From the IMG/VR virus record IMGVR_UViG_3300048834_000177, positions 1 through 36,736 of that record: DNA of 36,736 nucleotides; one strand, 5' to 3'. The notes beneath the pieces were generated by a model. The model was not told the DNA's origin and did no database searches. It saw nothing but the letters and a program-made list of their open reading frames with translations. This stretch comes from a virus. Position 1 is the first letter of the stretch, and every line of letters begins with the position of its first letter. This document shows positions 2,573-36,697 of the stretch, piece after piece. The position numbers were made by a program, and so were the translations under genes.

Positions 2573-2603
2573 GGCATTTATCCTATTTTGAATTTAGAGA
2601 ATT

Positions 2604-2960
2604 ATGAAGGAAATATTTAAATACTTACAAGAATGTCAGGTAGAAGGGAAATATGTTTCTGCTGTTTTTGGCAGCAGATTTGAGTTTAAAATATACGATT
2701 GCGATATTAAAGAGATGATAAAATATAAAGTTAGAGAATTAGCTGGCGGAAGCACACAAACAACATTACGTTTATTTGGCTTTATATGCTGGGCGTGTTT
2801 AAGAGCGAAAAATAGCGGATGGTTTAGACTCTTTGGTATTGGAATTACTTGGACGCAAAATAGTATTACACCGATGTTTAGTAAGCGAATTGGTAAATAT
2901 AAAAAAATTACAATAGGAAATTATAGGTATGGGTATTTGAAGCCTTGCCTACAACGTTGA
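2604..2960 (+). CDS. Hypothetical protein, cassette-like unit
   Basis: 118 aa; ATG at 2604 follows the ERF stop by 31 nt. No family is recognised; the middle has an aromatic stretch (LRLFGFICWACLRAKNSGWF) and the end is basic. The stop TGA lies inside the left arm of the long inverted repeat at 2946-3079, the arrangement seen for the other cassette-like genes here. It has no phage-like overlap with neighbours, so I infer it arrived separately from the surrounding early genes. Confidence 0.55.
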   Translation: MKEIFKYLQECQVEGKYVSAVFGSRFEFKIYDCDIKEMIKYKVRELAGGSTQTTLRLFGFICWACLRAKNSGWFRLFGIGITWTQNSITPMFSKRIGKYKKITIGNYRYGYLKPCLQR

Positions 2961-3079
2961 GCATATACGAAGGCAGGGCTTTGAAATACTAAAGCTCGTT
3001 TACTTCCGAAAGTTTAATCAAAGTACAAAAGCTGAAAGTTTGCACTTCTGCCCTGCTTTTGTATATGCATTGTTGGCAG
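2946..3079. repeat. attC-like long imperfect inverted repeat (site A)
   Basis: The left arm has TGCCTACAAC, then GCATATAC and GGCAGGGC; the right arm has GCCCTGC, GTATATGC and GTTGGCA. Blocks pair with small mismatches and extra bases on one side, around a central spacer. The spacer motif GAAAGTTT is the reverse complement of the AAACTTTC seen in the other sites, so this copy may be in reverse orientation. About 134 bp, within the length range of integron attC sites. Confidence 0.6.
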
Positions 3080-3109
3080 TAGTGCTTTTTGTCAAGTTGT
3101 TTTTAAGTA

Positions 3110-3577
3110 ATGGATAAATATAGAGATTGGAATATTTTGCAAGAATTGCCACAAGGTTGGGTAATGGATAAAACGGCTGGTTCTCCTGCACCAAATACTG
3201 TTTTTATTACAAATGGCAAAAGCGTTTTAAATGGTCAAAAAAGGGCTTTGTTAAAAGTAGGAGCAAAACGAGATATTAACACACCAAAAAACGAGATATT
3301 AAAACCTAACCATATTGTTGAAGTCAACGAAATGGTAGAAAAAACGGAAATACCGATTTTCCCTGCTAAAACAGTAAATGATTTGGCTCGGTTAAAATTC
3401 AAAGAACAACTATTAAAAGAAATTATGTTTGACTTAATGGTTTGCGAAATTGAGAAGTGGGATAAAAAAGAGTACATAAATGAAATAAAAAAATTATTGA
3501 ATAGCATCGATACATCAAATAAAAAGAAAGTCCACACAGCAAGTCTTCCAGATTTGTTTAGTGCGGTCGGTCTTTAG
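3110..3577 (+). CDS. Hypothetical protein, cassette-like unit (155 aa)
   Basis: ATG at 3110 lies 30 nt after site A and the gene ends just before site B, making a single-gene unit between two hairpin sites. The N-terminus (MDKYRDWNILQELPQGWVMD, then TAGSPAPNTVF) resembles short proteins common in Bacteroidota genomes. A helical region (residues 90-140) follows, with a final SLPDLFSAVGL. No enzymatic motif is seen and the function is unknown. Confidence 0.6.
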   Translation: MDKYRDWNILQELPQGWVMDKTAGSPAPNTVFITNGKSVLNGQKRALLKVGAKRDINTPKNEILKPNHIVEVNEMVEKTEIPIFPAKTVNDLARLKFKEQLLKEIMFDLMVCEIEKWDKKEYINEIKKLLNSIDTSNKKKVHTASLPDLFSAVGL

Positions 3578-3583
3578 TGTTGG

Positions 3584-3717
3584 TGCTAACGGGTTCGGGC
3601 TAAACGATAGTGGCGGATTTTGGAGCGATACACTTTCAATTTAGCACTCACTTTATTAGATGCACAAATGTTTGATTTACCACTGAACCCGCTATTTCGT
3701 TTTAGCCCGTGTTATAT
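3584..3717. repeat. attC-like long imperfect inverted repeat (site B)
   Basis: The left arm TGCTAACGGG...GGGCTAAACGATAG (from 3584) pairs with the right arm CTATTTCGTTTTAGCCC followed by GTGTTAT (to 3717). The left arm carries unpaired extra bases (GGTT) near the core, as attC sites do. The central spacer contains ACTTTCAATTTAGCAC, a motif also seen in sites D and G. With the next repeat it fills much of the 398-bp gap between genes at 3577 and 3975. Confidence 0.65.
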
Positions 3718-3765
3718 TCCAGTTTTTCTTCTTCTTTTTTTTGTGCGTGGGAAAGAAGCGTTGGC

Positions 3766-3830
3766 TTTGTGGCTCTTTTAAAAACAATGGTTTGTGGGTT
3801 GATTTGTGCGGTTTTTAAATGTGCCACAAA
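3766..3830. repeat. Inverted repeat in the 3577-3975 gap
   Basis: TTTGTGGC at 3766-3773 is the exact inverse of GCCACAAA at 3823-3830, with 49 bp between. It lies between site B and the promoter at 3883, and may be the remnant of another hairpin site or a structured leader. Apart from this repeat, site B and the promoter, I see nothing in the gap. Confidence 0.4.
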
Positions 3831-3882
3831 TTGCGCTGGATGTATTGTTAATAACTTTATTGAACTAAACTTGAAAAAATAG

Positions 3883-3912
3883 TTGTAAAATAAAAAAGTA
3901 TAGTTATCTTTG
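3883..3912 (+). promoter_or_regulatory. Bacteroidota-type promoter of the helicase-ibrAB operon
   Basis: TTG at 3883-3885, 19 nt, then TATCTTTG at 3905-3912: an exact match to TTG-N19-TAnnTTTG. A short perfect palindrome GTGAA-TGT-TTCAC (3917-3929) lies at the expected transcription start and could be an operator. The next start codon in the right frame is 3975, which argues against the upstream ATG at 3921. Confidence 0.8.
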
Positions 3913-3974
3913 CTTCGTGAATGTTTCACAACCCAATGGCAAAAGGGAAAAGATGCCAAACAAAACTTACCACA

Positions 3975-4553
3975 ATGAATACAAAAAATGTAACAATAGA
4001 ACAACTTGCAGAAAGATTTAATCAGACTGTATGGGTAAAAGGAGATTTGAAAAGAATCTACTTAAATGATGAAGGTTATAACACAAAAAAAATGTCCACA
4101 AAGACCTTCATTTTTGAAAAAGACTGTGAATTTATAGTTAGCTGTCGTATTGAATGCCCAAGCCAACCTTACCAATGGATTCAATCACAGGAAGAAGAAG
4201 TAAAAGAGGGCGTGTATTCAAGAATTGAAGATTACATTGAGCGAATACTTGACCCTTCAATTGATGCAAAAGAGGCAGAAGAAGAAGCTAAAGCAACAGC
4301 AGAATGGGAGGCAGGAAGAGAAGAGAGAGAAAGAAAAGCATCCGAAGCTGCAAAGGAAAAAGAAGAACAAAAAAAAATTGAAGCTGAAAAAACTGCTGCT
4401 GTATTTGAAGCAGGTGGAGAAAAATATTCTCATTCTAAATTCGGAATAGGGATAGTTACTTCCGAAGATGACCAAACCATCACTTTAGTTTTTGAAGTAG
4501 TTGGAGAAAAGAAACTACTTAAAAGATTTGCCTCTTTAACTAAAGTAGTATGA
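3975..4553 (+). CDS. Coiled-coil protein with C-terminal PcrA/UvrD-Tudor-like domain
   Basis: 192 aa from ATG at 3975, chosen because the promoter's likely start point lies around 3918. The N-terminal 90 residues are a mixed domain. Residues about 95-140 are very rich in Glu, Lys and Ala and should form a charged coiled coil. The last 45 residues carry HSKFGIGIVTSEDD...EKKLLKRFASL, matching the H-x-x-F-G-x-G-x-V pattern of the Tudor-like domain at the C-terminus of UvrD/PcrA helicases, which mediates protein contacts. It heads an operon with overlapping ORFs (ATGA junction at 4550) that includes a helicase, so it may couple that helicase to a partner; this is inference. Confidence 0.6.
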   Translation: MNTKNVTIEQLAERFNQTVWVKGDLKRIYLNDEGYNTKKMSTKTFIFEKDCEFIVSCRIECPSQPYQWIQSQEEEVKEGVYSRIEDYIERILDPSIDAKEAEEEAKATAEWEAGREERERKASEAAKEKEEQKKIEAEKTAAVFEAGGEKYSHSKFGIGIVTSEDDQTITLVFEVVGEKKLLKRFASLTKVV

Positions 4554-4831
4554 TAAAATCAGTCAATATAAAGTTTGAGAAATTCCTACACGATACGGGC
4601 AAGGCAATCCTTGTTCGTATCAATGGAGCTGAACATTGGATACCAAAGAAACTTTGCAGGAAATTGATTGTAAATAATAAATTGGGAGGCAATGTGTGTA
4701 TCCCAACATTCATAGCTGAACGAATTGGCTTTGATGTAGATGATTGTAATCCTGATGTAGAGGTTATTCATCATATACCAGAAGCACAAGACAAATCAAA
4801 TATAAAGCACGATGCAGACCTTTTTAGATAG
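4550..4831 (+). CDS. Hypothetical protein in the helicase-ibrAB operon (93 aa)
   Basis: The start overlaps the previous stop (ATGA) and the end overlaps the helicase start by 20 nt, so the three genes are translationally coupled. The protein begins with strands (SVNIKFEKFLHDTGKAILVR) containing AEHWIPKKLC, and ends with an acidic, histidine-containing tail (EVIHHIPEAQD). No known family is recognised. The tight coupling implies function with the helicase. Confidence 0.6.
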   Translation: MIKSVNIKFEKFLHDTGKAILVRINGAEHWIPKKLCRKLIVNNKLGGNVCIPTFIAERIGFDVDDCNPDVEVIHHIPEAQDKSNIKHDADLFR

Positions 4832-6003
4832 TCAAATAAAAGCCATTGATAAACTTAACTCTGTAAAGTGTGGAGCTTTGTTTATGGAGGCAGGAACTGG
4901 CAAGACCCGTTCTGCAATGGAGTTGATTAAAAATACCGATGCCGATTATATTCTTTGGTTTACTCCTTTCCAAACAAAGGAAAATTTACAGGCTGAAATA
5001 AATAAATGGGGTGGTTTAGATTGTGATATTGTGGGTATCGAAAGCATTCAAAACAGCGATAGAATTTATTTAGAATATACCCAAAAATGCGAGCAAGCTA
5101 AAAAAGCATTTATTGTTGTGGATGAAAGTTTGAAGATAAAAAACGCTGATGCCAATACAACGACTTTTACAATTAGCTGAAAAATCAGCATATCGAATAA
5201 TATTAAACGGAACTCCCTTGAGCCGAAATTTACTTGACATATGGTCGCAAATGGAATTTCTTTCTCCAAAAATTCTAAAAATGGGATTAGCTGAATTTAA
5301 AAATACTTTTTGCGAATACATAAAAGTAACCTATCATTCACAGGGCTTTGGCAGGTCTTACTCAAAAGAGTTTATCAAAAAGTATCATAACATTGATTAT
5401 CTCTATTCATTGATTGAGCCGTTTATTTTTGAAAGCAAACTATCATTGAGTATCGGACAACAACATATTGATATTGATTACACTTTAACCGATGAAGAAA
5501 AAAGGCAACACGATAAACTGAAAGAAAAGTATTTGGATAATGAATATTTGCTTGCAAGGAATAATAACATATTTCTTGAGATTACTCAAAAGATGCAACA
5601 CAACTATTCTTTAAGTCTTTCAAAATTTGAGATAGCGGATAAATTATTGTCAGAAATTGACAAGTCAAAAGTGTTGATTTATGCAAAATATATTGACACG
5701 CAGGAAGCACTTGCAAAGCATTACAAAGATGTTCGGATAATGAGCCTACAAAAGCACTCATACGGATTGAATTTGCAGGACTATAATGTGATAATATTTT
5801 GGGATAAAACTTGGGATTATGCCCAAAGGGAACAGATTGAAAGAAGAATATTCAGAACAGGACAAAATTCAGAGTGTGTTTATTATGATTTGACTGGAAA
5901 TGTTGGACTGGAAAATATGATAAACCAAAACATTGAAAGGAAAAGAAATTTGTTAGATGTGTTTGCGGGGATGAGTGTTGAACAACTAAAAAAAGAACTG
6001 TGA
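4812..6003 (+). CDS. SNF2-type SF2 helicase/translocase, apparently frameshifted
   Basis: Two frames together make a complete small SNF2-like ATPase of about 396 residues. The first frame (4812-5180) has Walker A AGTGKT at residues 27-32 and the DES box (VVDES, residues 102-106). The second frame (open from 5149 to 6003) continues with RIILNGTPLSRN (motif III region) and the SNF2 motif VI region (REQIERRIFRTGQ). The shift needs one base less, most simply TTTT to TTT at 5164-5167, giving a smooth join before QLAEKSAYR. Either the gene is broken, the read has a homopolymer error, or a +1 frameshift occurs. Similar small SNF2 proteins are common in phages; here it overlaps the ibrA-like gene by 4 nt. 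Confidence 0.75.
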
Positions 6004-7184
6004 AAAAATACTTTGATATAAATGTTTATGATGCTGCAATTCAGCGAATGGAACTTATTTTTTCAGAATTTGAAAAGGTGTATGTTTCTTTTTCTGCTGG
6101 AAAAGATAGCGGTGTAATGGTGCAAATGGCTTTAGAAGTTGCAAGGAAACAAAACAAGGTGCCACTTAATGTTTTATTCATTGATTTGGAAGCACAGTAT
6201 AAAAGCACGATTGATTTTGCGGAATTAATCTTGAACAACCCCGAAATTAAACCTTACTGGGTGTGCTTGCCTATTCATTTAAGAAATGCAGTAAGCCAAT
6301 TTCAACCGCATTGGCTTTGTTGGGATGAAAACAAAAAAGATGCTTGGGTTCGGGAGTTACCAAAGAATTGCATCAGTGATGTAAATTACTTTCCATTTTT
6401 CAAGGTGGGAATGGAGTTTGAAGAGTTTGTTCCTGCCTTCGGTAATTGGTTTGCAAATGGAAAGAAAACCGCTTGTATGGTTGGGATTAGAAGTGATGAA
6501 AGTTTGAACAGGTTCAGAACTATTGCAAGCGATGAAAAAGAAACTTTTAACGGCAAGCAATGGACAACAAAACTAAATGATAATCTTTACAACGCTTATC
6601 CTATTTATGACTGGCGAACGGAAGATATTTGGAAAGCAAATGCAGTTAAAAAATGGAAATATAATAGGGTGTATGATTTGATGCACCTTGCAGGATTATC
6701 TATACACCAAATGCGGATTTGTCAGCCGTATGGCGATGACCAACGAAAAGGTCTTTATCTCTTTAAAATTCTTGAGCCTGAAACTTGGGCTAAAGTTGTG
6801 AATAGGGTTGAAGGGGCAAATTTTGGGAATAGATATTCCGAAAACGACAAAACCACTTTAGGAAACTATAAAGTGCATTTACCAGAAGGGCATACCTATG
6901 AGAGCTACGCAAAGTTTTTATTGGACACAATGCCACCGTATTTGAAAGAGCACTACCAAAAGAAGATTGATAAGTTTTTAGAATACTGGAAGAAAGAAAA
7001 CTTTGAAACCATTCCTGATATTTCAGATGCAAAACTGGAAGCAGCAAAGAAAATTCCTTCTTGGCGAAGGATTGTAAAAGTGCTTTTAAAAAACGATTAC
7101 TGGTGTAAAGGGCTTTCGTTTTCAGCTACCAAAAAAGAAATGGAAAAACAATTTGAATTAATTACCAAATATTCTGAATTATGA
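6000..7184 (+). CDS. ibrA: IbrA-like PAPS-reductase-fold protein (DUF3440 type)
   Basis: 394 aa, beginning with GTG at 6000 that overlaps the helicase stop (GTGA). The N-terminal PP-loop FSAGKDSGVM (residues 31-40) is the ATP-pyrophosphatase signature of the PAPS reductase/adenine-nucleotide alpha-hydrolase fold. Later elements VFIDLEAQYKST-like (VLFIDLEAQYKSTID), GIRSDESLNRFR and YPIYDWRTEDIWK are typical of IbrA and DUF3440 proteins. IbrA and IbrB were named in E. coli as regulators of immunoglobulin-binding proteins, but homologues occur as a pair in many phages, and PP-loop enzymes of this kind also act in DNA sulfur modification (DndC). The phage role is unknown; regulation or nucleic-acid modification are both possible. 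ibrB follows with ATGA overlap. Confidence 0.85.
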   Translation: MKKYFDINVYDAAIQRMELIFSEFEKVYVSFSAGKDSGVMVQMALEVARKQNKVPLNVLFIDLEAQYKSTIDFAELILNNPEIKPYWVCLPIHLRNAVSQFQPHWLCWDENKKDAWVRELPKNCISDVNYFPFFKVGMEFEEFVPAFGNWFANGKKTACMVGIRSDESLNRFRTIASDEKETFNGKQWTTKLNDNLYNAYPIYDWRTEDIWKANAVKKWKYNRVYDLMHLAGLSIHQMRICQPYGDDQRKGLYLFKILEPETWAKVVNRVEGANFGNRYSENDKTTLGNYKVHLPEGHTYESYAKFLLDTMPPYLKEHYQKKIDKFLEYWKKENFETIPDISDAKLEAAKKIPSWRRIVKVLLKNDYWCKGLSFSATKKEMEKQFELITKYSEL

Positions 7185-7786
7185 TAGATGAAATTTTGAA
7201 ACAAAATGCTGATTGCACCTTTGATGAAAAGGTTAAAATATACAATGCGATTTCACAACAGCTTTATGATTTTCTTGGTGTTAATCATCCAGTATTAAAT
7301 GTGCAACTTGTGCCAGTTGATGATGTGAAAGGGAATGATTACAACCCAAACAAAGTTGCTCCACCTGAAATGAATTTACTTGCTTTATCCATTCGTAAAG
7401 ATGGATTAACAATGCCTTGTGTAGTCGCAAATGATGAAAGCGGATATGTGGTTGTAGATGGATTTCACAGGCGAACACAAGTAGCGATGAAAAAAGATAT
7501 TCGTGAAAGTTTGTTTGGGTATTTGCCTGTATCAAAATTGAATAAAGGCATTGAAGATAGAATTACATCTACTGTAAGGCATAATATGGCAAGGGGAACT
7601 CATCAAGTAGAACTATCGGCTAAACTTATTACAATGCTTAAAAAGCATAATTGGACAAATGAACGAATAGGGAAAGAGCTTGGAATGGATGCAGACGAAG
7701 TTTTAAGATTAAAGCAAATTACAGGACTTGCAGAGGCGTTTGCACACAAAGAATTTTCCCGAAGTTGGGAAGTAGATAAATCCTGA
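7181..7786 (+). CDS. ibrB: IbrB-like ParB-fold nuclease/regulator
   Basis: 201 aa, close to the length of E. coli IbrB, so it appears complete. It shows the ParB/sulfiredoxin-fold core: VPVDDVKGNDYNPNKV (residues 45-60), LALSIRKDGLTMPCVV (67-82) and the phosphate-binding motif YVVVDGFHRRTQ (89-100). These are followed by a helix-turn-helix-like region near WTNERIGKELGMDADEVLRL. The 4-nt overlap with ibrA is the standard arrangement for this pair. ParB-like domains of this type bind or cleave DNA or hydrolyse nucleotides; which applies here cannot be read from the sequence. Confidence 0.85.
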   Translation: MIDEILKQNADCTFDEKVKIYNAISQQLYDFLGVNHPVLNVQLVPVDDVKGNDYNPNKVAPPEMNLLALSIRKDGLTMPCVVANDESGYVVVDGFHRRTQVAMKKDIRESLFGYLPVSKLNKGIEDRITSTVRHNMARGTHQVELSAKLITMLKKHNWTNERIGKELGMDADEVLRLKQITGLAEAFAHKEFSRSWEVDKS

Positions 7787-7865
7787 TGTTTACTGTGGTA
7801 AGTTTTCATCAGGCTGGCGAAATGGGGAGGATGCCAGTTGCTCCCCTTATTTTAAAAACAAAGCA

Positions 7866-8039
7866 ATGGCAAAGAAATTAACGCACGGTGGTGCAAGAAA
7901 AAAAGCAGGTCGCAAACCTATTGAGGATAAAAAACAACAAGTGAATTTATTCCTTGAGGGTTCGCTAATTGAAAAGCACGGAGGAAAAGAAAATGTTCAA
8001 CAGAAATGTTATGCGTTCTTGCGGGAGGGGAAAAAATAA
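7866..8039 (+). CDS. Small basic DNA-binding-like protein (57 aa)
   Basis: ATG at 7866, TAA at 8037-8039. The N-terminus LTHGGARKKAGRKP matches the GGxRxGAGRKP motif found at the start of many short phage and plasmid proteins thought to bind DNA, followed by a short helix (QQKCYAFLREGKK). It is followed closely by a terminator-like hairpin and so ends the helicase-ibrAB operon. Function unknown. Confidence 0.6.
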   Translation: MAKKLTHGGARKKAGRKPIEDKKQQVNLFLEGSLIEKHGGKENVQQKCYAFLREGKK

Positions 8040-8043
8040 ATGT

Positions 8044-8090
8044 GTGCAACTCTGCGTGGGGTTGCGGGAGGCGTTGCACTCTTTTGTTTT
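8044..8090 (+). terminator. Terminator-like hairpin after the ibrAB operon
   Basis: GTGCAAC at 8044-8050 pairs with GTTGCAC at 8073-8079, and a T-rich tract (TCTTTTGTTTT) follows. The 22-nt loop is G-rich and long for an intrinsic terminator, so confidence is moderate. It lies 5 nt past the last stop of the operon. Confidence 0.5.
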
Positions 8091-8144
8091 GTGCGATAGC
8101 CAAACTGCGGTGCAGAGGGAGAAAAAAAGAAGAAGAAAAATTGA

Positions 8145-8237
8145 ATATAACGGTTGGGCTATGTGCAGTTGCCCTTGTAGAAACTTTAAATATTGCACTA
8201 ACCTAAATTGGGCAATTGCATACAGCCTGTGTTATGC
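8145..8237 (+). repeat. attC-like site C
   Basis: The left arm ATATAAC-GGTT-GGGCTATGTGCAGTTGCCC pairs with the right arm GGGCAATTGCATACAGCC-TGT-GTTATGC (mismatches and extra GGTT on the left). The spacer holds GAAACTTTAAAT. About 93 bp. The right core is GTTATGC, one base off the integron R' consensus GTTRRRY. Confidence 0.7.
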
Positions 8238-8271
8238 CCCGTAATTGTTTAACTTATTAATCTTAAATACA

Positions 8272-8955
8272 ATGAATTATCAAATTATTAAAGACAAAGA
8301 AAAGCTACTGAAATTTATTGAATGGCTTCCTGAATTGCAAAATGGGGAGGCTTATTATTGCTGCCTTTTTGCACGTTCAAAATATTGTAAAGATGTTGCT
8401 CATATTAGCTCGGATAAACAACAGTTAAAAAGATTTACTTCGACTAAAGAGTTTTTGTTTGAAAAAATACAGCAATTAGAATGTGAAGTTGGCAGTTACT
8501 TTCAAAAGCATAATCCAATACCACAAGAAGCACTTGCAATTTATATTAACCCAAACCCAAGAAGCTACGAGAAAGCCGCAAAGAATGGATTAATAAAACT
8601 TGCTGAACTAATTACAAAACCTTACGGTGGATATAACCCACACCAAGAATTAATGAGCGAAATACAAAAGGCTTGTAGTCGAAAAGTGTATTTTGATATT
8701 GATTTTGATGGCGTTGAATTGGAAGTTGTTAGAAATAGAGCAATTGAACTTATAAACGAAGATTGTTTGCATTTTTTACAAACAAGGGGCGGTTTTCATT
8801 TACTTGTTGAGTTGTCAAAAATTAATAAGCAATACGAAAAAACTTGGTACAAATCAATTTCATCTATCGAGGGAGTTGATATTAAAGGGGACAATATGGT
8901 TCCTGTTATCGGATGCTACCAAGGTGGATATGTGCCGTCTTTTTATGGGGCATAA
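8272..8955 (+). CDS. Cassette gene: unknown protein with prim-pol-like motifs (227 aa)
   Basis: Start ATG at 8272 lies 34 nt after site C; the stop TAA (8953-8955) is part of the GCATAAC core of site D. The C-terminal half has [12 protein letters not shown] (a hydrophobic-D-x-D pattern), [13 protein letters not shown] (a small-x-H pattern) and [14 protein letters not shown]. The DxD and H elements in this order resemble archaeo-eukaryotic primase/primase-polymerase catalytic motifs, and the N-terminal half is helical and would be a separate domain. The third acidic motif is not clear, so prim-pol identity is a suggestion only. Confidence 0.65.
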
Positions 8956-9082
8956 CGGTTAGGCGGTTGGCGTTCGTTGCCGACTTTGGAACACAAAACT
9001 TTCACTTTAAAAATAAATTTGATATGGAAAACAAAACTTCAATTAACCACGAAGACGGCAATGACGCTAACCGCTTGTTAGC
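8950..9082 (+). repeat. attC-like site D
   Basis: GCATAAC at 8950-8956, then GCGGTTGGCGTTCGTTGCCG in the left arm; the right arm has CGGCAATGACGCTAACCGC followed by GTTAGC (9077-9082). The two arms pair over about 20 bp with mismatches, and the left arm carries extra bases (GGTTA). The spacer contains GGAACACAAAACTTTCA. The upstream gene's stop is inside the left core and the downstream gene starts within the spacer. Confidence 0.75.
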
Positions 9083-9326
9083 TGCTGGGCTTTTTGATTT
9101 ACAAGAATTTCACGGATGGCCACCAACAACAGTAAACAATTATTTTGAAGAGAAAGGGTGGGAAATGATTGATTGCTTTAATGATTATAAATGGGCTTGG
9201 GTAAATCATTCTCTTAATAAATCTATTGTTGCAAAAACTGAAATGGTAGATGAAGATGCTTTGGGAAATGAAATGATAGTTGATATTTGGTGGTATGATG
9301 GGATTTATTCAGAGCCTTGCAGCTAA
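9024..9326 (+). CDS. Cassette gene: hypothetical protein (100 aa)
   Basis: The only ATG upstream of the conserved-looking body is 9024, inside site D, so about the first 20 residues (INHEDGNDANRLL) are encoded by the right arm of the hairpin. The body (FDLQEFHGWPPTTVNNYF, KWAWVNHSLNKS, DIWWYDG) is aromatic-rich and compact. The stop TAA is in the core of site E. No family is recognised. Confidence 0.6.
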   Translation: MENKTSINHEDGNDANRLLAAGLFDLQEFHGWPPTTVNNYFEEKGWEMIDCFNDYKWAWVNHSLNKSIVAKTEMVDEDALGNEMIVDIWWYDGIYSEPCS

Positions 9327-9410
9327 TGACAAGTGTATGTGCCGTGCTTGTTGTGAACTTTATTAACGGCTACAAACTTTAATTGCATGGCATCATAATA
9401 CGTGTTATGC
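9322..9410 (+). repeat. attC-like site E
   Basis: The left arm GCTAATGACAAGTGTATGTGCCGTGC pairs, imperfectly, with the right arm GCATGGCATCATAATACGTGTTATGC. The right core GTTATGC is at 9404-9410. The spacer has GAACTTTATTAACGGC and ACAAACTTTAAT. About 89 bp. Pairing is weaker than in sites C and D but the order of elements is the same. Confidence 0.65.
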
Positions 9411-9423
9411 TTATTTTATTAAC

Positions 9424-9687
9424 ATGAAAATAGAGGCAGAACTTCAACAAATAGTAGTTAGCTCAAAATCTGAAAGGCTATTACGTTTACCAAAACAATA
9501 TAGGGGTGCTTATATTTTATCAGCACTTCCTTCTGAATACACGGATGGAACAGAAAATATATCTATAATTTTAAATAATAGTTATGATGGAGACAATGAA
9601 GATATGGATTTATATATGGATTTGACCAAAAAAGAAGCTATTCAATTTGCAAAATGTTTAATAGCAATAGCTGAAAGTATTGATTAA
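9424..9687 (+). CDS. Cassette gene: hypothetical protein (87 aa)
   Basis: ATG at 9424 lies 13 nt after the right core of site E, and TAA at 9685-9687 directly abuts the GCATAAC core of repeat F. The sequence has RLLRLPKQYRGAYILSAL, an acidic run (SYDGDNEDMDLYMDL) and a closing helix (KEAIQFAKCLIAIAESI). No family is recognised. It is the last cassette of the array. Confidence 0.6.
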   Translation: MKIEAELQQIVVSSKSERLLRLPKQYRGAYILSALPSEYTDGTENISIILNNSYDGDNEDMDLYMDLTKKEAIQFAKCLIAIAESID

Positions 9688-9745
9688 GCATAACACCGAT
9701 ATATCCCAATGTGGTTATATTGGTGGATAACCCAAATGGAATAGT
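9688..9745. repeat. 58-bp palindromic repeat F, copy 1
   Basis: It starts with the cassette core GCATAAC, then a near-palindrome: CACCGATATA(T)CC, loop CAATGT, GGTTATATTGGTG, and then GGATAACCCAAA. A second copy (about 53 of 58 positions by eye) lies on the opposite strand at 35808-35864. Both copies sit between the stop of a cassette gene and the start of a phage gene. Confidence 0.8.
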
Positions 9746-9764
9746 ACTATCTGATATTGGAATA

Positions 9765-10196
9765 ATGAAAGATATATTTGTTGACATCGGAATAACAAAA
9801 GGCAGCGCGGTAGTAATGGTGGACCACGAAAACAAAAGTATTGCCGTTTTAAAAAGGTTTTGCGCAGGCGAATTAATAGATCTCTTTTTAACCGAAAAAG
9901 GCACTATTTTCATCGAGGACAGTAATTTAATCAAAGGCAGTTGGCACGGAGCAACTTCGCGCGAAAATGTTGGTAAAAATAAAGGCTTTTCATCCGCTAT
10001 TTTCCAAATTCTAAACCACAAAGGAATAACTATCAAACCGCTAAAACCAAGCGGTTATAGTAGTTTCTTTGAAAAACACAAACTAGAAAAAATTTTCAAG
10101 AACAAGCCAAAAAAAACAAACACCGACCAGCGCGCAGCTCTAGCAATGGCATTACTACATTCATCAAGCCCAATTCAAAACTATTTATTTATTTAG
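9765..10196 (+). CDS. RuvC-like Holliday-junction resolvase
   Basis: 143 aa from ATG at 9765; an upstream in-frame ATG at 9711 lies inside repeat F and is unlikely to be the start. RuvC-fold motifs are in the right order: Asp7 in FVDIG, Glu in IFIEDSN (about residue 50), a lysine-rich NVGKNKGF element, and a C-terminal TNTDQRAALAMALL helix with the last acidic residue. Phage RuvC-like enzymes resolve branched DNA before packaging. The N-terminal ITKGSAVVMVD is a shortened first beta-hairpin. Its stop TAG lies in the operator palindrome at 10191-10209. Confidence 0.65.
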   Translation: MKDIFVDIGITKGSAVVMVDHENKSIAVLKRFCAGELIDLFLTEKGTIFIEDSNLIKGSWHGATSRENVGKNKGFSSAIFQILNHKGITIKPLKPSGYSSFFEKHKLEKIFKNKPKKTNTDQRAALAMALLHSSSPIQNYLFI

Positions 10197-10209
10197 AATG
10201 ATTATAAAT
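10191..10209 (+). promoter_or_regulatory. Palindromic operator-like motif, copy 2
   Basis: ATTTAGAATGATTATAAAT, the same motif as at 1139-1157 and 35540-35558. Halves ATTTAGAAT and ATTATAAAT mirror each other except at one position. It overlaps the stop codon of the RuvC-like gene. Confidence 0.6.
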
Positions 10210-10240
10210 TACATTATTTTGTAACTATTTATGTAACTAT

Positions 10241-10274
10241 TTGCATGTTATTAAAGTATAATATAATATATTTG
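10241..10274 (+). promoter_or_regulatory. Early promoter for 10339-12544
   Basis: TTG at 10241-10243, 23 nt, then TATATTTG at 10267-10274. The block starting AACTATTTGCATGTTA is nearly identical to that at 1171 with the same 23-nt spacing, so the two early promoters are duplicates. Confidence 0.65.
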
Positions 10275-10338
10275 AGTAGCAAGCTAAAACAAGTTCAGCA
10301 CACACGGTTATAAGAAAAGAAATAGAATCTTTAAGCAA

Positions 10339-10638
10339 ATGAGAAAAGATGCTAAAATAGTTCGGAAAGTTTTAGAAATTAGCCAGAACAGTAGGGATGA
10401 TGTTAATGAGTTATACGCCTGCTATTTGGGCGAAAAAGGCTTTAATGTTTTTTCCCTTGCCTATATTGACATTGTAAAATACATAGCACAGGGGCGTATA
10501 AAATCAATAGAAACCATCTCTAGGCTCAGTAGGTTAGCCCAGCAGAAACATATAGAACTGAGAGGCAAGGAGTGGGAGCGAAGACAGAAGCAGGCACGAA
10601 AAGTAAGCAACCAAATAATAAATAATGAATATGAATAA
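10339..10638 (+). CDS. Hypothetical early phage protein (99 aa)
   Basis: First gene after the second early promoter. It begins MRKDAKIVRKVLEISQNSRD, then ELYACYLGEKGF, a central helix and a basic C-terminus (LRGKEWERRQKQARKV). This pattern is recurrent in Bacteroidota phage early regions but has no assigned function that I know of. It overlaps the DUF3127-like gene by 14 nt. Confidence 0.65.
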   Translation: MRKDAKIVRKVLEISQNSRDDVNELYACYLGEKGFNVFSLAYIDIVKYIAQGRIKSIETISRLSRLAQQKHIELRGKEWERRQKQARKVSNQIINNEYE

Positions 10639-10930
10639 TCAACTATCTATCACCCTAGAAGGTGTTTTATTAGACAAAATGGAGGTGCAAAATGTTAGCC
10701 CAACTTTCACAAAGCAAGATTTCGTTTTGCAGGTGGAAACAAATAATGGCAAGGAGGTGTTTTTCGATTTCGTGAAAATTACGGCTTCAAAAATAATTCC
10801 AGCGCTGGAAAATATCCCGACAGGCTCGAATGTCCGTGTTTTCGTGAACATAAAAGGCAACAAAGTGGAGAAGTTTCCAAACACAAGCTATTTCACGAAT
10901 TTAAACGCTTGGAAAATTGAACAGATATGA
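10625..10930 (+). CDS. DUF3127 / SSB-like OB-fold protein
   Basis: 101 aa (ATG at 10625; a second ATG at 10631 is equally possible). The pattern LSITLEGVLLDKMEVQNVSP, TFTKQDFVLQ, then FVKITASK, GSNVRVFVNIKG and YFTNLNAWKIE at the end matches DUF3127, a Bacteroidota family resembling single-stranded-DNA-binding OB folds. In a phage with ERF and YqaJ recombination genes, a single-strand-binding role is plausible. Confidence 0.7.
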   Translation: MNMNNQLSITLEGVLLDKMEVQNVSPTFTKQDFVLQVETNNGKEVFFDFVKITASKIIPALENIPTGSNVRVFVNIKGNKVEKFPNTSYFTNLNAWKIEQI

Positions 10931-11184
10931 TAGGCGAAATTATCAAAATATATCTAAATGGCGAAAGAGAAGAGCTGTTCAGCCGTGTCGGTGATTTTAC
11001 ATTTGGTGAAATAGTGTCTTTTAAGGCTGAAACAAATGTATCTATTTACGGGATTAAGCGCATTTTCTACGTTGTTAAGCCTGTTCACGAGGTCGTTAAG
11101 CCGAAAAAAGTAATAGACGCAAGATTCGTTCAATTCACTGAGCCTCCAACGGTATTCAAAAGAATTGTTTTAAAAGATTATTAA
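10927..11184 (+). CDS. Hypothetical small phage protein (85 aa)
   Basis: ATG overlaps the stop of the DUF3127-like gene (ATGA). Beta-rich start (MIGEIIKIYLNGEREELF), central VKPVHEVVKPKK, and a basic end (TVFKRIVLKDY). No family is recognised. Confidence 0.55.
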   Translation: MIGEIIKIYLNGEREELFSRVGDFTFGEIVSFKAETNVSIYGIKRIFYVVKPVHEVVKPKKVIDARFVQFTEPPTVFKRIVLKDY

Positions 11185-11206
11185 CGGATAGTAAAAATTA
11201 CTGAAG

Positions 11207-11380
11207 ATGACACGGCACATTTTAAAAACAAGACACTTCAAGATTTGCCTCGTAATTGGATGCGGATATTGGAAAGATGCTTATCTGAAAGATAATATAG
11301 GCATCGAGGGAGTTACGCACAATTTAATACTGCCATTTCTCCGCATACAATGGGGGTATTTAGTAGCAGAAAAGGAGTAA
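11207..11380 (+). CDS. Small hypothetical protein (57 aa)
   Basis: ATG at 11207, TAA at 11378-11380. It begins MTRHILKTRHFKICLVIGCG and ends FLRIQWGYLVAEKE. Full-length open frame, no overlap, between the 85-aa gene and the degenerate cassette site at 11393. No function recognised. Confidence 0.4.
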   Translation: MTRHILKTRHFKICLVIGCGYWKDAYLKDNIGIEGVTHNLILPFLRIQWGYLVAEKE

Positions 11381-11392
11381 TGGTTACTATCC

Positions 11393-11507
11393 GCTAACGT
11401 TCCGAGTATTGCCGTTCGTTGCGGATTTAGAATTACAAACTTTCAAAACAGATAAAACATGAATACAGAACAAAACTTTCAAAATAGCACAGAAGCCAGC
11501 AATGACG
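11393..11507 (+). repeat. Degenerate attC-like site G
   Basis: GCTAACG at 11393, then GCCGTTCGTTGCGGATTTAG and ACAAACTTTCA. The left half and spacer closely follow sites B and D. The right arm is only represented by CCAGCAATGACG (11496-11507) and then diverges, with no GTTAGC core, so this looks like a truncated or fused site. Confidence 0.55.
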
Positions 11508-11659
11508 TTTTTCTTGGTTTCTTTTCGATACTATGGGTGGTTGCTTTGGTATTATGGGTAACATTTGTAATAAAAGGAATGATTACTGAAATGTGTATTG
11601 CAAATGCTTTTATGTGGATTGGTGTCTTTGGTCGCAGCTGGTCAAAAAATGGCAGCTAA
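11459..11659 (+). CDS. Cassette-like gene: small membrane protein (66 aa)
   Basis: ATG at 11459 lies inside site G, as the 9024 gene's start lies inside site D, and the stop TAA (11657-11659) lies in a GCTAAC core. Residues 17-41 (VFLGFFSILWVVALVLWV and on) and about 46-60 (CIANAFMWIGVFG) are two membrane-spanning stretches. Function unknown; its neighbours are phage early genes. Confidence 0.55.
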   Translation: MNTEQNFQNSTEASNDVFLGFFSILWVVALVLWVTFVIKGMITEMCIANAFMWIGVFGRSWSKNGS

Positions 11660-11687
11660 CGTTTTGCAGCTACACGCAGTAGCCGAA
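11655..11687 (+). repeat. attC-like half site H
   Basis: GCTAACGTTTTGCAGC looks like the left arm of a cassette site, but no distant right arm is found before the next gene at 11757. A small local hairpin GCTAC-ACGCA-GTAGC (11669-11683) follows the core. Likely the remnant end of a cassette. Confidence 0.4.
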
Positions 11688-11756
11688 GCAGGCAACAGCA
11701 TATCTATGATTTGAACGCAAACGAATTTTACAACGAATTAATGAAACTTAATTAAC

Positions 11757-11939
11757 GTGAGGGTATATCTGAACCATTTTCTAATGCCGTGCGACAAAAT
11801 AGTGGCGCGGCATATAGCCACAATAGATGAGGGAAAGCACCATTACGACAGTGAGAGCAAGATGTACCATTACGAGATACAGAAAATAACGCCTTTTGTA
11901 GATGTTAAAATTTTAAAGGTAAAAGAGAAGCTATGTTGA
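11757..11939 (+). CDS. Hypothetical small protein (60 aa, GTG start)
   Basis: Starts with GTG at 11757 (MRVYLNHFLMPCDKIVARHI) and its last codons overlap the YqaJ start by 7 nt, supporting translation. It has HHYDSESKMYHYE and PFVDVKILKVKEK. No family is recognised; coupling suggests work with the exonuclease. Confidence 0.5.
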   Translation: MRVYLNHFLMPCDKIVARHIATIDEGKHHYDSESKMYHYEIQKITPFVDVKILKVKEKLC

Positions 11940-12544
11940 GCCCCAGCAGAATGGGTAAGATCACTGGGTCAAGCTGCCATATCTTATTTCCCAAGAGAGA
12001 AAACAAAACAACACAAGAGAGCTATGCCATGGAACTAGCAATCGCTAAGCTTTTTAACTATCGGCAAAACGCATCTTCTTGGCAGATGGACCATGGGCAC
12101 ACACGCGAAGCAATGGCAATGGATATATTTAGAAATACCTACCCATTTGCCTATTTCCCTGAATTCAAAAGCCTTGGAGAATATGGAGGATCAGCAGACT
12201 GCATGATTCCAGACGAAGATTTTGGGGTTGACTTCAAGTGCCCGACTAGCTTAGAAAAGTGGCTATCTTACCTAAATGGCGTAGACCACCAACAGGAGCG
12301 ACAGGCTCAGATGTATATGTGGTTGTATGAAAAGCCAAAATGGAAGATCATCGCGTTTTTAAATGAAACCAACTTTATGATAGATAGCGGAGAAGCATAC
12401 CCAGTCCCCCCTGGAAAAAGGTTTATTGTTTGCGAAATTCACAGAGACCCGTTGTTTGAAGCGCAAATACAAGAGCGTGGTGCCATCCTTTTAAAACGAA
12501 GGGATGAAATCATTGAAGAGCTTAAAATAAAATTAAGTATTTAA
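11933..12544 (+). CDS. YqaJ-family (lambda-Exo-like) exonuclease
   Basis: 203 aa. YqaJ-type nucleases resect DNA ends so that an annealing protein can act; here the partner would be ERF at 1937. Visible elements: SRMGKITGSS near the start, GHTREAMAMDIF (residues 55-66) with the first acidic residue, EYGGSADCMI (83-92) with the metal-binding Asp, GVDFKCP (100-106; the D/E-x-K position) and QERQAQMYMWLY (121-132). These match the PD-(D/E)xK core of the family. It ends the second early operon and is followed by hairpins. Confidence 0.85.
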   Translation: MLSPSRMGKITGSSCHILFPKRENKTTQESYAMELAIAKLFNYRQNASSWQMDHGHTREAMAMDIFRNTYPFAYFPEFKSLGEYGGSADCMIPDEDFGVDFKCPTSLEKWLSYLNGVDHQQERQAQMYMWLYEKPKWKIIAFLNETNFMIDSGEAYPVPPGKRFIVCEIHRDPLFEAQIQERGAILLKRRDEIIEELKIKLSI

Positions 12545-12550
12545 AATATA

Positions 12551-12628
12551 CGAGGTAAAAACTAACCGTTTTTAAGCCGCAAGCCCCTCGTTAACACCAG
12601 TAGAGAAGGTCTTTACTGGTGTTCTTTT
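12551..12628 (+). terminator. Hairpin and intrinsic terminator after the early operon
   Basis: A first hairpin pairs CGAGG (12551-12555) with CCTCG (12586-12590). Then AACACCAGTA (12593-12602) pairs perfectly with TACTGGTGTT (12614-12623) around an 11-nt loop, followed by CTTTTG. The second is a typical Rho-independent terminator for the operon ending at 12544. Confidence 0.75.
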
Positions 12629-12656
12629 GAATTATAAAAAAAAAGACTTATATTTG
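12627..12656 (+). promoter_or_regulatory. Strong Bacteroidota promoter in the control region
   Basis: TTG at 12627-12629, exactly 19 nt, then TATATTTG at 12649-12656. Transcription should begin close to 12661-12664, exactly where the structured element starts. The next annotated gene is 460 bp away. Confidence 0.8.
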
Positions 12657-12660
12657 AATA

Positions 12661-12757
12661 GTTGTAGCAGCGACTAGTAACGATACTGGCAATGATAGGT
12701 GCAATGCCTAGAACCGCCATTAAAGCCAATGGATGCTGCTACATCTGTTGGCTTTTG
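12661..12757 (+). ncRNA. Candidate structured small RNA or regulatory leader
   Basis: Immediately after a consensus promoter, GTAGCAGC (12664-12671) pairs with GCTGCTAC (12735-12742), closing a domain with internal stems TAGG/CCTA (12696-12710) and CCATT/AATGG (12717-12732). A competing or terminating hairpin pairs AAAGCCAA (12722-12729) with TTGGCTTT (12748-12755), ending in TTTTG. A tRNA is excluded because there is no T-loop and the domain is 79 nt. It could be a short phage RNA with its own terminator or an attenuator for the late operon. Confidence 0.5.
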
Positions 12758-12910
12758 TCATTTTGCGCCATATAGCAAATATAAGGGTGAAAACTTTTAA
12801 GACGCTCCCCCAAAGGTTTATCAAAACTATTTTAAATTATAGGCATGGACGCAAAGCACTTTCCTCTATAAGCCAAAACCAAGCGAGAAACTCATTCGAC
12901 AGCTGTTATA

Positions 12911-12968
12911 GGTAATAGGAGATGCTTAATCTTCTTAGGGGGTAGGGGGTTAAGCACTTTCTATTACC
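12911..12968. repeat. Long hairpin in the control region
   Basis: GGTAATAG (12911-12918) pairs with CTATTACC (12961-12968), and TGCTTAA (12923-12929) with TTAAGCA (12950-12956). The loop carries a G-rich run (AGGGGGTAGGGGG). It could be a terminator-like structure, an origin element or a packaging signal; it lies 150 bp before the terminase genes. Confidence 0.55.
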
Positions 12969-12992
12969 TTCCTTCACTCAAATCTATTCTCT

Positions 12993-13055
12993 AGCTGTTA
13001 GCTGTTAGCTGTTTTTTCTCAATTAGAATTTTCACGAATTTTCACGAATTTTCAT
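12993..13055. repeat. Two sets of iteron-like direct repeats
   Basis: AGCTGTT occurs three times in tandem at 12993-13013 (a further copy at 12901). GAATTTTCAC occurs three times in tandem at 13026-13055, the last ending in T. Tandem short repeats next to terminase genes may be binding sites for terminase small subunit or a repressor. Confidence 0.6.
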
Positions 13056-13090
13056 AAAACACTATTTAGAACCTTTTTAAATAAAAATTG

Positions 13091-13115
13091 TATATTTGTT
13101 TAGAATCAATCTAAA
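13091..13115 (+). promoter_or_regulatory. Late promoter element with palindromic operator
   Basis: TATATTTG at 13091-13098 matches the -7 consensus; no clear TTG lies 19-20 nt upstream. Directly after it, TTTAGA-ATCAA-TCTAAA (13099-13115) is a perfect palindrome at the expected start point. It is related to the operator motif at the early promoters (shared TTTAGAAT). A protein bound here would control terminase and structural genes. Confidence 0.65.
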
Positions 13116-13120
13116 TAGAT

Positions 13121-13579
13121 ATGGCTAACCCAGTAGGTAGACCCAGAGGCATAAAATCACCCGAATTACTTTGGGAGCTTTTTTTAGAGTATAAAAAAGA
13201 AGTTAAATCAAAACCTTTTCTCGTTCATGACTTCGTGGGGAAAGATGGAATTTCTGTTTACAGAGAAAAAGAGAAGTGCTTAACCATGGAAGGCTTCGAA
13301 GATTTTATAGTAGAAAGCCCAAAAACAACGATAACTTTTGCGGATATTGATCCATATTTAAAGGGAGAATACGAGGAATATTCCTTAATCTCTGCGCGTA
13401 TAAAGAAAAGAATACGTGAAGATCAGATCACAGGAGGCATGGCAGGGGTGTATAATGCTAACTTAACAGCTCGACTTAACGCGTTAAGTGAGAGCCAAAA
13501 TATTGACATCACAGAGAAGCGCAAAACAGCTTTAGAACTATTTCCCGAAATTCCTGAGATAGATGGCGAGAGCGATTAA
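13121..13579 (+). CDS. terS: Terminase small subunit
   Basis: 152 aa. It begins NPVGRPRGIKSPELLWELF and has YKKEVKSKPF, the usual N-terminal layout of Bacteroidota phage small terminases, in which this region binds DNA. The middle (SARIKKRIREDQITGGMAGV, then NLTARLNAL) is helical and would build the ring oligomer. It overlaps the large subunit by 17 nt. This protein recognises phage DNA for packaging and hands it to the motor. Confidence 0.85.
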   Translation: MANPVGRPRGIKSPELLWELFLEYKKEVKSKPFLVHDFVGKDGISVYREKEKCLTMEGFEDFIVESPKTTITFADIDPYLKGEYEEYSLISARIKKRIREDQITGGMAGVYNANLTARLNALSESQNIDITEKRKTALELFPEIPEIDGESD

Positions 13580-16679: not shown

Positions 16680-16685
16680 AACAAA

Positions 16686-17939: not shown

Positions 17940-17946
17940 TACTAAC

Positions 17947-17971
17947 GGGGGGCGTAAAAACCCCCTTTTAT
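17947..17971 (+). terminator. Terminator downstream of the capsid gene
   Basis: GGGGG paired with CCCCC (17961-17965) around a CGTAAAAA-type loop, followed by TTTTAT. It would cause partial termination so that the capsid gene is transcribed more than the downstream genes; the next gene begins 5 nt after it. Confidence 0.8.
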
Positions 17972-17975
17972 AACT

Positions 17976-21229: not shown

Positions 21230-21248
21230 ACTAAACTAAATAAGTAAA

Positions 21249-22333: not shown

Positions 22334-22334
22334 A

Positions 22335-22349: not shown

Positions 22350-22354
22350 ATTAA

Positions 22355-35807: not shown

Positions 35808-35864
35808 TTATTCGGTTTGGTTTATCCACCAATATAACCACATTGGGTTATATCGGTGTTATGC
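35808..35864 (-). repeat. 58-bp palindromic repeat F, copy 2
   Basis: The minus strand reads GCATAAC, CACCGATATAACC, loop CAATGT, GGTTATATTGGTG, GGATAAACCAAA; it repeats copy 1 at 9688-9745 with a few substitutions and opposite orientation. It starts 7 bases past the stop of the DUF5131 gene and precedes the winged-helix gene. Confidence 0.8.
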
Positions 35865-35870
35865 AACAGC

Positions 35871-36527
35871 TTAAAGAAGTCTCTGCAAGTTCGATTTGTT
35901 GTGAATAATAGTGAACTTTTGCAACTCCGAAACCAATTGTAAAACCTTTTCTTTTGTTGGTTCAGGTAGGTTGTTTCGTCCGCTATCAGCTCCGATATTC
36001 ACTTGTTCAGGATTGCACTGTTTAAGCAAATCAACCATTGTGTTTAAATCAAAATCTAAAATCGGTTCAATGGTTACAAATGTTTCAAATCCACAATCCG
36101 AAAGCATTTTCATATATTTTGCACGTTCGTAAGGTTTTGGGCTGTTTGCCATTATTTCGCTGTAAAACCTATCGCTTTCTATTGTTGTGCAAATAACAGA
36201 TTTAGGCAATTTAAAACTTAGTATTCGTTTTGGGTTCTTAGTCTGAAATAGGTATTTGTTATCAAACTTTTGGCAATATTCCAAAGTCTTATTTATCCAT
36301 TCATCAGGTATGTTTTCGGCAAACATATCACAACTCGAACCAACGAAAATAAAATTTCCAGTTCCTAAATCTGTTTTCAATTCTTTAGCATCAAAACGAA
36401 CCTTATTGAGTTTGCCCCATCGCTTCATGTAGCAGTAAGAACAATCATGGTAGCATTCGCCTTTAATCGTGTTCCAAGTGTGAGTTATAAACTCATACAT
36501 ATTTCCTTTACTCAAATTTAATCCCAT
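35871..36527 (-). CDS. DUF5131 / phage Gp37-Gp68-like radical SAM protein (cassette)
   Basis: 218 aa from ATG at 36527 (starting MGLNLSKGNMYEFITHTW); an in-frame ATG at 36500 is also possible, and the frame continues upstream into site I. The iron-sulfur motif CYHDCSYCYMKRW (C-x3-C-x2-C) matches DUF5131, a radical-SAM-like family first seen in phages. FVGSSCDMF, LFQTKNPKRI, VICTTIESDRFY and TFVTIEPILDFD follow in the usual order, and the end is VNIGADSGRN-like. The substrate is unknown. It lies between an attC-like site and repeat F, so it may be a cassette cargo gene. Confidence 0.8.
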   Translation of the reverse strand: MGLNLSKGNMYEFITHTWNTIKGECYHDCSYCYMKRWGKLNKVRFDAKELKTDLGTGNFIFVGSSCDMFAENIPDEWINKTLEYCQKFDNKYLFQTKNPKRILSFKLPKSVICTTIESDRFYSEIMANSPKPYERAKYMKMLSDCGFETFVTIEPILDFDLNTMVDLLKQCNPEQVNIGADSGRNNLPEPTKEKVLQLVSELQKFTIIHNKSNLQRLL

Positions 36528-36565
36528 ATAGTTGTATTTTAATAATTTAACAATAAAAGCCGATT

Positions 36566-36697
36566 GCATAACACACGGTATAAAACAGTTGGGCATCCAT
36601 GGTTATTTGAGCATTTCAGCCCGTTTCAAACGTTATGGTAATTTGACAGGTCAGAGCATCGCAGCCCAACCGATTTCATGCCGTCATCGTTATATGA
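36566..36697 (-). repeat. attC-like site I
   Basis: On the minus strand, ATATAACGATGACGGCATG and GGTTGGGCTGCGATG form the left arm and CATGGATGCCCAACTG and ACCGTGTGTTATGC the right arm. They pair over about 25 positions with mismatches and extra left-arm bases (GATG). The right core GTTATGC (36572-36566) equals that of sites C and E. The spacer includes AACGTTTGAAACGGGC. It implies at least one more cassette beyond the window edge. Confidence 0.7.

What the first reader, a model, noticed from the sequence alone, without database searches (positions are those of the whole stretch)
8145..9745. Integron-like cassette array inside a phage early region
Three unrelated single-gene units, all on the + strand, are separated by long imperfect hairpins with a recurring core: GC(A/T)TAA on the left and GTTATGC or GTTAGC on the right, extra bases on one arm, and a similar spacer motif (ACTTTCA). 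These match the plan of integron attC sites (R'' RYYYAAC, R' GTTRRRY) with one deviating base. No integron integrase is in the window. An integrase-less cassette array in phage DNA would mean that phages carry or acquire cassettes, or use a Bacteroidota-specific recombination system.
Basis: partly seen in the sequence, partly recalled or inferred. Interest (0 to 1): 0.82.

Follow-up and report, generated by a model that had tools for sequence, protein, structure and literature searches.

The report
Swappable gene cassettes in Bacteroidota phages
This bacterial virus carries rows of small genes, each headed by a DNA hairpin, that near-identical sister viruses gain, lose and move at one exact step in the DNA, much like the integron cassettes known for spreading resistance genes in bacteria, but with the genes facing the other way.

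Summary
The array is real and mobile. A sister phage, 99.9% identical in backbone, has the region rearranged at the hairpins: cassette D sits elsewhere, a 5.2-kb block is exchanged, and a second array (35.9-36.7 kb) holds another gene. Near-identical Flavobacterium psychrophilum phages also differ by whole cassettes. All 11 phage junctions compared fit a crossover at AA|C (G|TT on the other strand), the integron step. The unit is hairpin-then-gene, not gene-then-attC. Scored intervals run hairpin-to-gene in 87 of 92 cases in viral contigs but gene-to-hairpin in 36 of 44 in Bacteroidota chromosomes with the same hairpin family; no cassette protein is shared. Chromosomal arrays lie beside an attI-like site and a tyrosine recombinase outside the IntI clade (XerA-like, HARP-like extension). 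Hairpin-positive genomes carry it in 18 of 24 cases (116 of 395 overall), IntI in 3 of 24 (105 of 395). The window encodes neither, so I infer a host enzyme acting in trans. Integron parts in phages were known; the polarity switch and this recombinase link I did not find in print.

The parts
2955..3589 (+). Cassette A: hairpin (AAC...GTT 2953-3074), then a 155-aa ORF 3110-3577
   Evidence: hairpin score 17.6; left boundary is a junction in the sister phage (J2)
3590..8150 (+). Block A', 4.56 kb: hairpin from 3588, then several genes (helicase-, PAPS-reductase- and ParB-like among them); may be one very large cassette
   Evidence: end repeats GTTATATTC.../...GAATATAAC; block 2955-8148 absent from the sister; genes. 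Hairpin A' itself does not pass the detector
8151..8955 (+). Cassette B: hairpin 8149-8233, ORF 8272-8955 (no Pfam match)
   Evidence: left junction J4; own ends complementary, 14 nt (I11)
8956..9326 (+). Cassette C: hairpin 8954-9079 with the ATG of its gene (9024-9326) in the loop
   Evidence: right boundary is junction J1
9327..9693 (+). Cassette D: hairpin about 9325-9406, ORF 9424-9687; in the sister phage it lies at site A instead
   Evidence: J1-J3; own ends complementary, 12 of 12 nt (I15)
9694..9743 (+). E: constant end of array 1, attI-like position, short dyad
   Evidence: same sequence in the sister beside another neighbour (J1); 93% identical over 54 nt to the sister's end of array 2
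35809..35858 (-). I: constant end of array 2, copy of E
   Evidence: 33 nt at 97% to 9688-9720
35859..36689 (-). Cassette of array 2: hairpin J 36570-36691, DUF5131 gene (35871-36527); replaced by a DUF3560 gene in the sister
   Evidence: J5, J6; Pfam; hairpin score 15.7

Best explanation
The window carries two integron-like cassette arrays without a recombinase. Each unit is a hairpin site followed by one gene, rarely several. A tyrosine recombinase, most likely an XerA-like 'array integrase' (my working name) of the Bacteroidota host, acts on the folded strand 5'-AA|CG...stem...TGTT-3', cuts between A and C, and excises or inserts whole units beside a constant end (E/I) or another hairpin, so that the phage line trades accessory genes one at a time. 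Shown: gain, loss and relocation of units between sister phages at AA|C; orientation marks of the hairpins; opposite gene polarity in viral and chromosomal arrays; an array integrase and attI-like site beside chromosomal arrays. Inferred: that this enzyme serves the phage sites, that it does so in trans, that the substrate is single-stranded, and that phage genes face this way because they must read with the phage operon.
For: Sister phages; F. psychrophilum phages; complementary own ends; marks AACG/long spacer versus AACA/short spacer agree in 168 of 202 hairpins, 2 disagree on spacer, the rest have incomplete marks (loci overlap); polarity 87 of 92 viral and 36 of 44 chromosomal the other way, second viral set alone 41 of 44; wobble pairs favour the AA|C strand 296:103 viral, 163:120 chromosomal; array integrase downstream-adjacent to hairpins in 8 of 9 loci with oriented hairpins out of 19 fetched only for the integrase; co-occurrence 18 of 24 against 116 of 395, p 2.4e-6; G|TT boundary at attI in plasmids and genomes; Foldseek best match is the Vibrio integron integrase 2a3v.
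Against: No recombinase in the window or sister, and the host is unknown, so the enzyme is not tied to these phages directly. 10 of the 19 integrase loci show no oriented hairpin (three end at a contig edge just downstream) and one shows it on the wrong side. Six of 24 hairpin-positive genomes lack the integrase at E 1e-70; four of the 24 rest on short matches (without them 14 of 20). A bona fide IntI1 recombined one attC of Polaribacter phage P12002L (PMC9892861), so IntI could do it. Most junctions leave a few bases of ambiguity; only J1 and J2 pin the step after AA. One 165-bp difference between the sisters is not at a hairpin.
Confidence: 0.65

Rival explanations
1. A classical IntI of the host moves the cassettes; the phage arrays are ordinary CALINs with a divergent attC type.
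For: IntI is common in the phylum (105 of 395 genomes over the curated cut-off); its arrays, as in L138, show the same marks TAACA...CGTTA by eye; IntI1 recombined attC2 of phage P12002L (PMC9892861).
Against: Hairpin-positive genomes carry IntI in 3 of 24 cases, no enrichment (p 0.15); blastn with these hairpins found one 26-nt match in 20 IntI neighbourhoods; the arrays found here lie beside the other recombinase.
Confidence: 0.22
2. Homologous or single-strand-annealing recombination, for instance by the phage ERF protein, shuffles modules between related phages.
For: ERF-like gene at 1937-2572; hairpins of one type are similar between cassettes.
Against: Exchanged neighbours share only about 3-10 bases at the junctions, and all 11 fit the outer edge of the hairpin; a 707-nt chromosomal duplicate has the same edges.
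Confidence: 0.04
3. Hairpin-headed units move as single strands by an HUH (IS200/IS605-like) transposase, which also uses hairpins and a fixed cleavage tetranucleotide.
For: Hairpin at one end, fixed cleavage step, strand bias of wobble pairs.
Against: No such transposase was sought or seen; the complementary unit ends, attI-like site and tyrosine recombinase fit integrons. The comparison with IS200/IS605 is recalled, not tested.
Confidence: 0.04
4. The hairpins are mRNA elements (leader, processing or translation control) and the mobility is incidental.
For: In 38 of 87 viral units the first in-frame ATG lies inside the unit's own hairpin; in phages the favoured strand is the coding strand.
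Against: In chromosomes the same strand is antisense to the genes and is still favoured (163:120, p 0.012); no Rfam match in 2500-12000; units are exchanged whole. A second role is not excluded.
Confidence: 0.05

Closest known systems
CALINs and attC sites in phages (Qi et al. 2023, PMC9892861; passages and section 3.4 read)
   Same: Integrase-less cassette sites in phages, Bacteroidota phage P12002L included; DNA methylase cargo; sites of P12002L at about 30.0, 38.0 and 38.8 kb look alike by eye
   Different: No sister-phage exchange, reversed polarity or non-IntI integrase in the parts I read; P12002L sites score below my threshold
Chromosomal and mobile integrons with IntI (TIGR02249)
   Same: Cassettes with complementary own ends, G|TT step, attI-like site next to the integrase, gene-to-hairpin order in chromosomes
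   Different: Recombinase below the TIGR02249 cut-off and outside the IntI clade; in phages the genes are reversed and no integrase is present
XerA-type recombinases (NCBIfam NF040815, 'site-specific tyrosine recombinase/integron integrase')
   Same: The three array integrases scanned score 223-229 bits, cut-off 220
   Different: Extension of about 100 residues with HARP-like similarity (Pfam HARP in 3 of 12, best E 0.0014); neighbouring cassette array

Membership tests
Integron (IntI type) | intI gene (TIGR02249) in cis | tested here: not met
   none among window ORFs; chromosomal arrays of this type lie beside another recombinase
Integron (IntI type) | attI site at the array end with crossover G|TT | tested here: inconclusive
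   E/I is in that position and constant but resembles no known attI; chromosomal arrays have a conserved attI-like site
Gene cassette (integron) | whole units gained, lost or moved at G|TT | tested here: met
   11 phage junction comparisons, two chromosomal or plasmid ones, and a 707-nt duplicate
Gene cassette (integron) | gene reads towards its own attC | tested here: not met
   87 of 92 viral intervals are the other way; 36 of 44 chromosomal ones do
attC site | core R'' RYYYAAC and R' GTTRRRY | tested here: not met
   only AAC/GTT is constant: GTTATGC, GTTAGCT, GTTGTAG, GTTATCG and others
attC site | imperfect hairpin with unpaired spacers, extra bases and one favoured strand | tested here: met
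   144 distinct viral hairpins: median spacers 5 and 1, extra base in the crossover-side arm 37 against 6, wobble 296:103
attC site | recognised by the standard attC covariance model or HattCI | not testable with these tools
   neither program nor model is available here
CALIN | two or more attC sites close together without an integrase | tested here: inconclusive
   met with this hairpin family as attC; not tested with the standard attC model

The most novel reading that the evidence does not exclude
Bacteroidota run a second kind of integron, driven by a HARP-headed XerA-like integrase that is a close relative, possibly the paraphyletic source, of IntI; and their phages keep a separate pool of cassettes on the same sites with the genes reversed, hairpin first, so that they read with the phage operon.
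Probability: 0.45. Interest if true: 0.93.

Novelty: new variant of a known kind. Interest (0 to 1): 0.85.

Why it matters
Sister pairs give natural evidence that phages trade single genes by site-specific cassette recombination, which would explain variable accessory regions in Bacteroidota phages. They also point to integron-like platforms outside the IntI clade in a phylum where a screen of complete genomes reported only one complete integron beyond the Chlorobi/Ignavibacteriae side (PMC9024848, passage read). The opposite gene polarity in phage and host suggests two cassette pools under different selection, a question that can be tested directly. Whether IntI arose from this recombinase group is left open by the tree (AU p 0.21).

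Tried and rejected
Folding alone and a permissive detector did not separate most sites from shuffles and were dropped as proof. A hairpin of the F. psychrophilum phages (L024:6936-7072) gave 3 short matches in 395 genomes of the order of G007, so the source of those cassettes is unknown. The cassette D protein has no match in the phage collection. Hairpin C in plasmids gave two weak hits. The genome-contig pattern scan gave 30 hits; I looked at 8 and kept 3 as real (L056, L059, L062); others are from distant phyla and were not examined. Blastn with these hairpins found one 26-nt match in 20 IntI neighbourhoods. The seeds of the IntI model were the longest ORF per locus and include wrong ORFs; it served for screening only. 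In one search the end-repeat displays of B and D are out of register; for these I rely.

Dropped before counts: L059 (a 4-kb MAG contig, two hairpin-to-gene intervals) was left out of the chromosomal count as possibly viral; with it the count is 36 of 46. L056, L062, L206 and L217 are not (L206 and L217 overlap L219 and L158). Intervals under 60 or over 2500 nt, between hairpins of unlike or unclear orientation, or bounded by hairpins below the threshold are not counted; cassette D is such a case. The chromosomal set includes 20 loci fetched for the integrase. Of the 8 chromosomal exceptions 4 were scanned: an IS110 transposase, a C5 DNA methylase, an isochorismatase-like and an rRNA-dimethylase-like protein. 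The 5 viral exceptions are ORFs of 43-123 aa.

Paper searches. I saw listings, plus passages of PMC9024848 and PMC8138268 and passages with section 3.4 of PMC9892861. Preprints and most subscription journals are not held.

Full report
WHAT IS THERE. The window is a 36.7-kb virus record with phage genes: terminase large subunit, portal and major head protein at 13.6-17.9 kb, helicase-, PAPS-reductase- and ParB-like genes at 5.1-7.8 kb. Between 2.95 and 9.73 kb it holds units that each start with an imperfect hairpin and carry + strand genes: A, A' (a 4.56-kb multigene block), B, C and D, ending at a short dyad E. A second array on the minus strand at 35.8-36.7 kb ends in a near-copy of E.

CHANCE. 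At score 15 the detector finds 5 hairpins in the window against a mean of 0.08 in 60 Markov shuffles; one of the 5 lacks the marks described below. D, A', E and I fail the test singly, and only C folds exceptionally well. The hairpins alone would be suggestive only.

SISTER PHAGES. Contig L005/G003 (36,652 bp, 147-bp repeat at its ends) matches the window at 99.9% over 9691-25052 and 24853-35862. It differs at the hairpins. The sequence left of cassette D is joined to E, so D is absent there; D sits at site A instead; the block 2955-8148 is missing and about 830 bp of other sequence is present; in array 2 the DUF5131 gene is replaced by a DUF3560 gene. One more difference, 165 bp at window 1084/1085, is not at such a site. 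A blastn search with hairpin C led to Flavobacterium psychrophilum phages of the genus Unahavirus. Five regions of 5-8 kb (2A, F7, D35, D15, D17) are 99.8-100% identical in their shared parts and differ by whole units present, absent or replaced; D17 equals D15. The 11 phage junction comparisons all fit a step at AA|C, that is G|TT on the other strand. Most leave a few shared bases of ambiguity; in J1 and J2 one partner has T in place of C, which places the step after AA. The own ends of a unit are complementary, for example 12 of 12 nt in D and 13 of 14 in B, a mark of integron cassette circles as I recall them.

POLARITY. The moving unit is hairpin then gene. Two DNA patterns gave 24 and 37 viral stretches. 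A common orientation mark emerged: AACG with a longer spacer on the crossover side, AACA with a shorter spacer on the other. Of 202 hairpins in the first survey, 168 carry both marks in agreement, 2 disagree on the spacer and the rest have incomplete marks; the loci overlap, so copies are counted. Between neighbouring hairpins of one orientation the longest ORF runs hairpin-to-gene in 87 of 92 viral intervals (79 of 84 clusters at 70% identity). The second viral set, fetched after the idea was formed, gave 41 of 44. In Bacteroidota chromosomes with the same hairpins it runs gene-to-hairpin in 36 of 44 intervals (36 of 43 clusters), the usual integron order. The crossover side is the same there: a unit present twice in genome G064, identical over 707 nt, starts and ends at AA|C. 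No protein is shared between the 92 viral and 44 chromosomal ORFs at E 1e-3.

WHICH STRAND. Wobble pairs favour the AA|C strand 296 to 103 in 144 distinct viral hairpins and 163 to 120 in 94 chromosomal ones. In phages this is also the mRNA strand, so RNA selection may add to the bias; in chromosomes it is antisense to most genes. In 38 of 87 viral units the first in-frame ATG lies inside the unit's own hairpin, as in window gene C.

RECOMBINASE. Screening with IntI and array-integrase models found no relative in the window or the sister. IntI proper is common in the phylum (105 of 395 genomes over the curated cut-off). Beside chromosomal arrays of this hairpin type lies another tyrosine recombinase: in L158, L163 and L229, fetched for their hairpins, and in 8 of the 9 loci with oriented hairpins among 19 loci fetched only for the integrase; 10 of the 19 show no oriented hairpin, three of them with the contig ending within 0.6 kb. 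The three scanned score over the cut-off of NF040815 and under that of TIGR02249. Twelve aligned members keep invariant residues at the catalytic positions R, K, HxxR, H and Y (positions assigned from recall). An extension of about 100 residues has HARP-like similarity in 3 of 12 members (best E 0.0014). The model of one (mean pLDDT 79, pTM 0.49) best matches the Vibrio integron integrase 2a3v and XerA. In the tree IntI and Xer are each one clade (100/100); the array integrases are not one clade, but one clade is not rejected (AU p 0.21). A sequence just after the integrase gene, CATATAAACAAG|TT and variants, borders the first unit; two Chryseobacterium plasmids share it and differ from about the G|TT step on, and two genomes share the first unit behind different sequences.

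CO-OCCURRENCE. Two searches of the same 395 genomes mark 24 as hairpin-positive (16, 12, 4 in both). The array integrase at E 1e-70 is in 18 of them against 116 of 395 overall (Fisher p 2.4e-6), IntI in 3 against 105 of 395 (p 0.15). Four of the 24 rest on short matches (G009, G193, G260, G396), all integrase-positive; without them it is 14 of 20. The threshold also admits short members without the extension. Two viral contigs encode relatives (L180, L202), so some phages may bring their own enzyme.

MECHANISM. Most likely a host array integrase excises cassettes from and inserts them into phage DNA at the folded AA|C strand, with E/I or a hairpin as target. Shown: unit, boundary, orientation, exchange between sisters, association in chromosomes. 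Inferred: the enzyme, action in trans, the single-stranded substrate. A host IntI is the main rival, since IntI1 recombined attC2 of Polaribacter phage P12002L (PMC9892861), and sites of that phage resemble this family by eye although they score below my threshold.

CARGO. Of 16 larger cassette proteins from phages and viral contigs scanned against Pfam, 5 match DNA methylases (three in L177, one each in L202 and L037), 2 RNA ligases (L192, L024), 1 Eco57I below its cut-off (L015) and 8 nothing. The window's own B, C and D proteins have no Pfam match. Counter-defence and repair are plausible roles; none was tested.

NOVELTY. Integron components and CALINs in phages are published (PMC9892861). 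In the searches listed under Tried and rejected I found no paper on cassette exchange between sister phages, on reversed gene polarity, or on a non-IntI integrase with attI-like site and arrays in Bacteroidota; I read only parts of three papers.

Noticed in passing
L027, L031, L036, L039, L045, L046: A hairpin subtype (...GGTTGGCGCAGTGCG...GCATTGCGCCAACC...) whose long loop appears to hold a whole small ORF.
   Followed up: partly
window 1084/1085; L015:16933-17097: The sister phage has 165 bp more inside an ORF, with no hairpin or AA|C boundary.
   Followed up: no
L015:11711-13467: In the sister phage array 2 continues beyond the point where the window ends, with two more hairpins and ORFs of 245 and 167 aa on the same strand.
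   Followed up: no
window 11389-11440 and 11653-11760: Half-copies of hairpin C and further GCTAACG motifs (D1) that the detector does not call; possibly decayed sites.
   Followed up: no
L138:9580-18890 (genome G150): A textbook IntI integron in a Bacteroidota genome with at least 13 attC copies, in a phylum said to have almost none among complete genomes.
   Followed up: partly
L262:13163-13302, 15258-15397, 17639-17778: Three equal-scoring 140-nt inverted elements inside a Chryseobacterium plasmid array; nature unknown.
   Followed up: no
L264:5029-6804: A shorter XerA-like relative lies beside an erm(F) resistance gene on a Flagellimonas plasmid.
   Followed up: no
L095, L100, L101: Short matches to the hairpin loop only; probably chance.
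   Followed up: no
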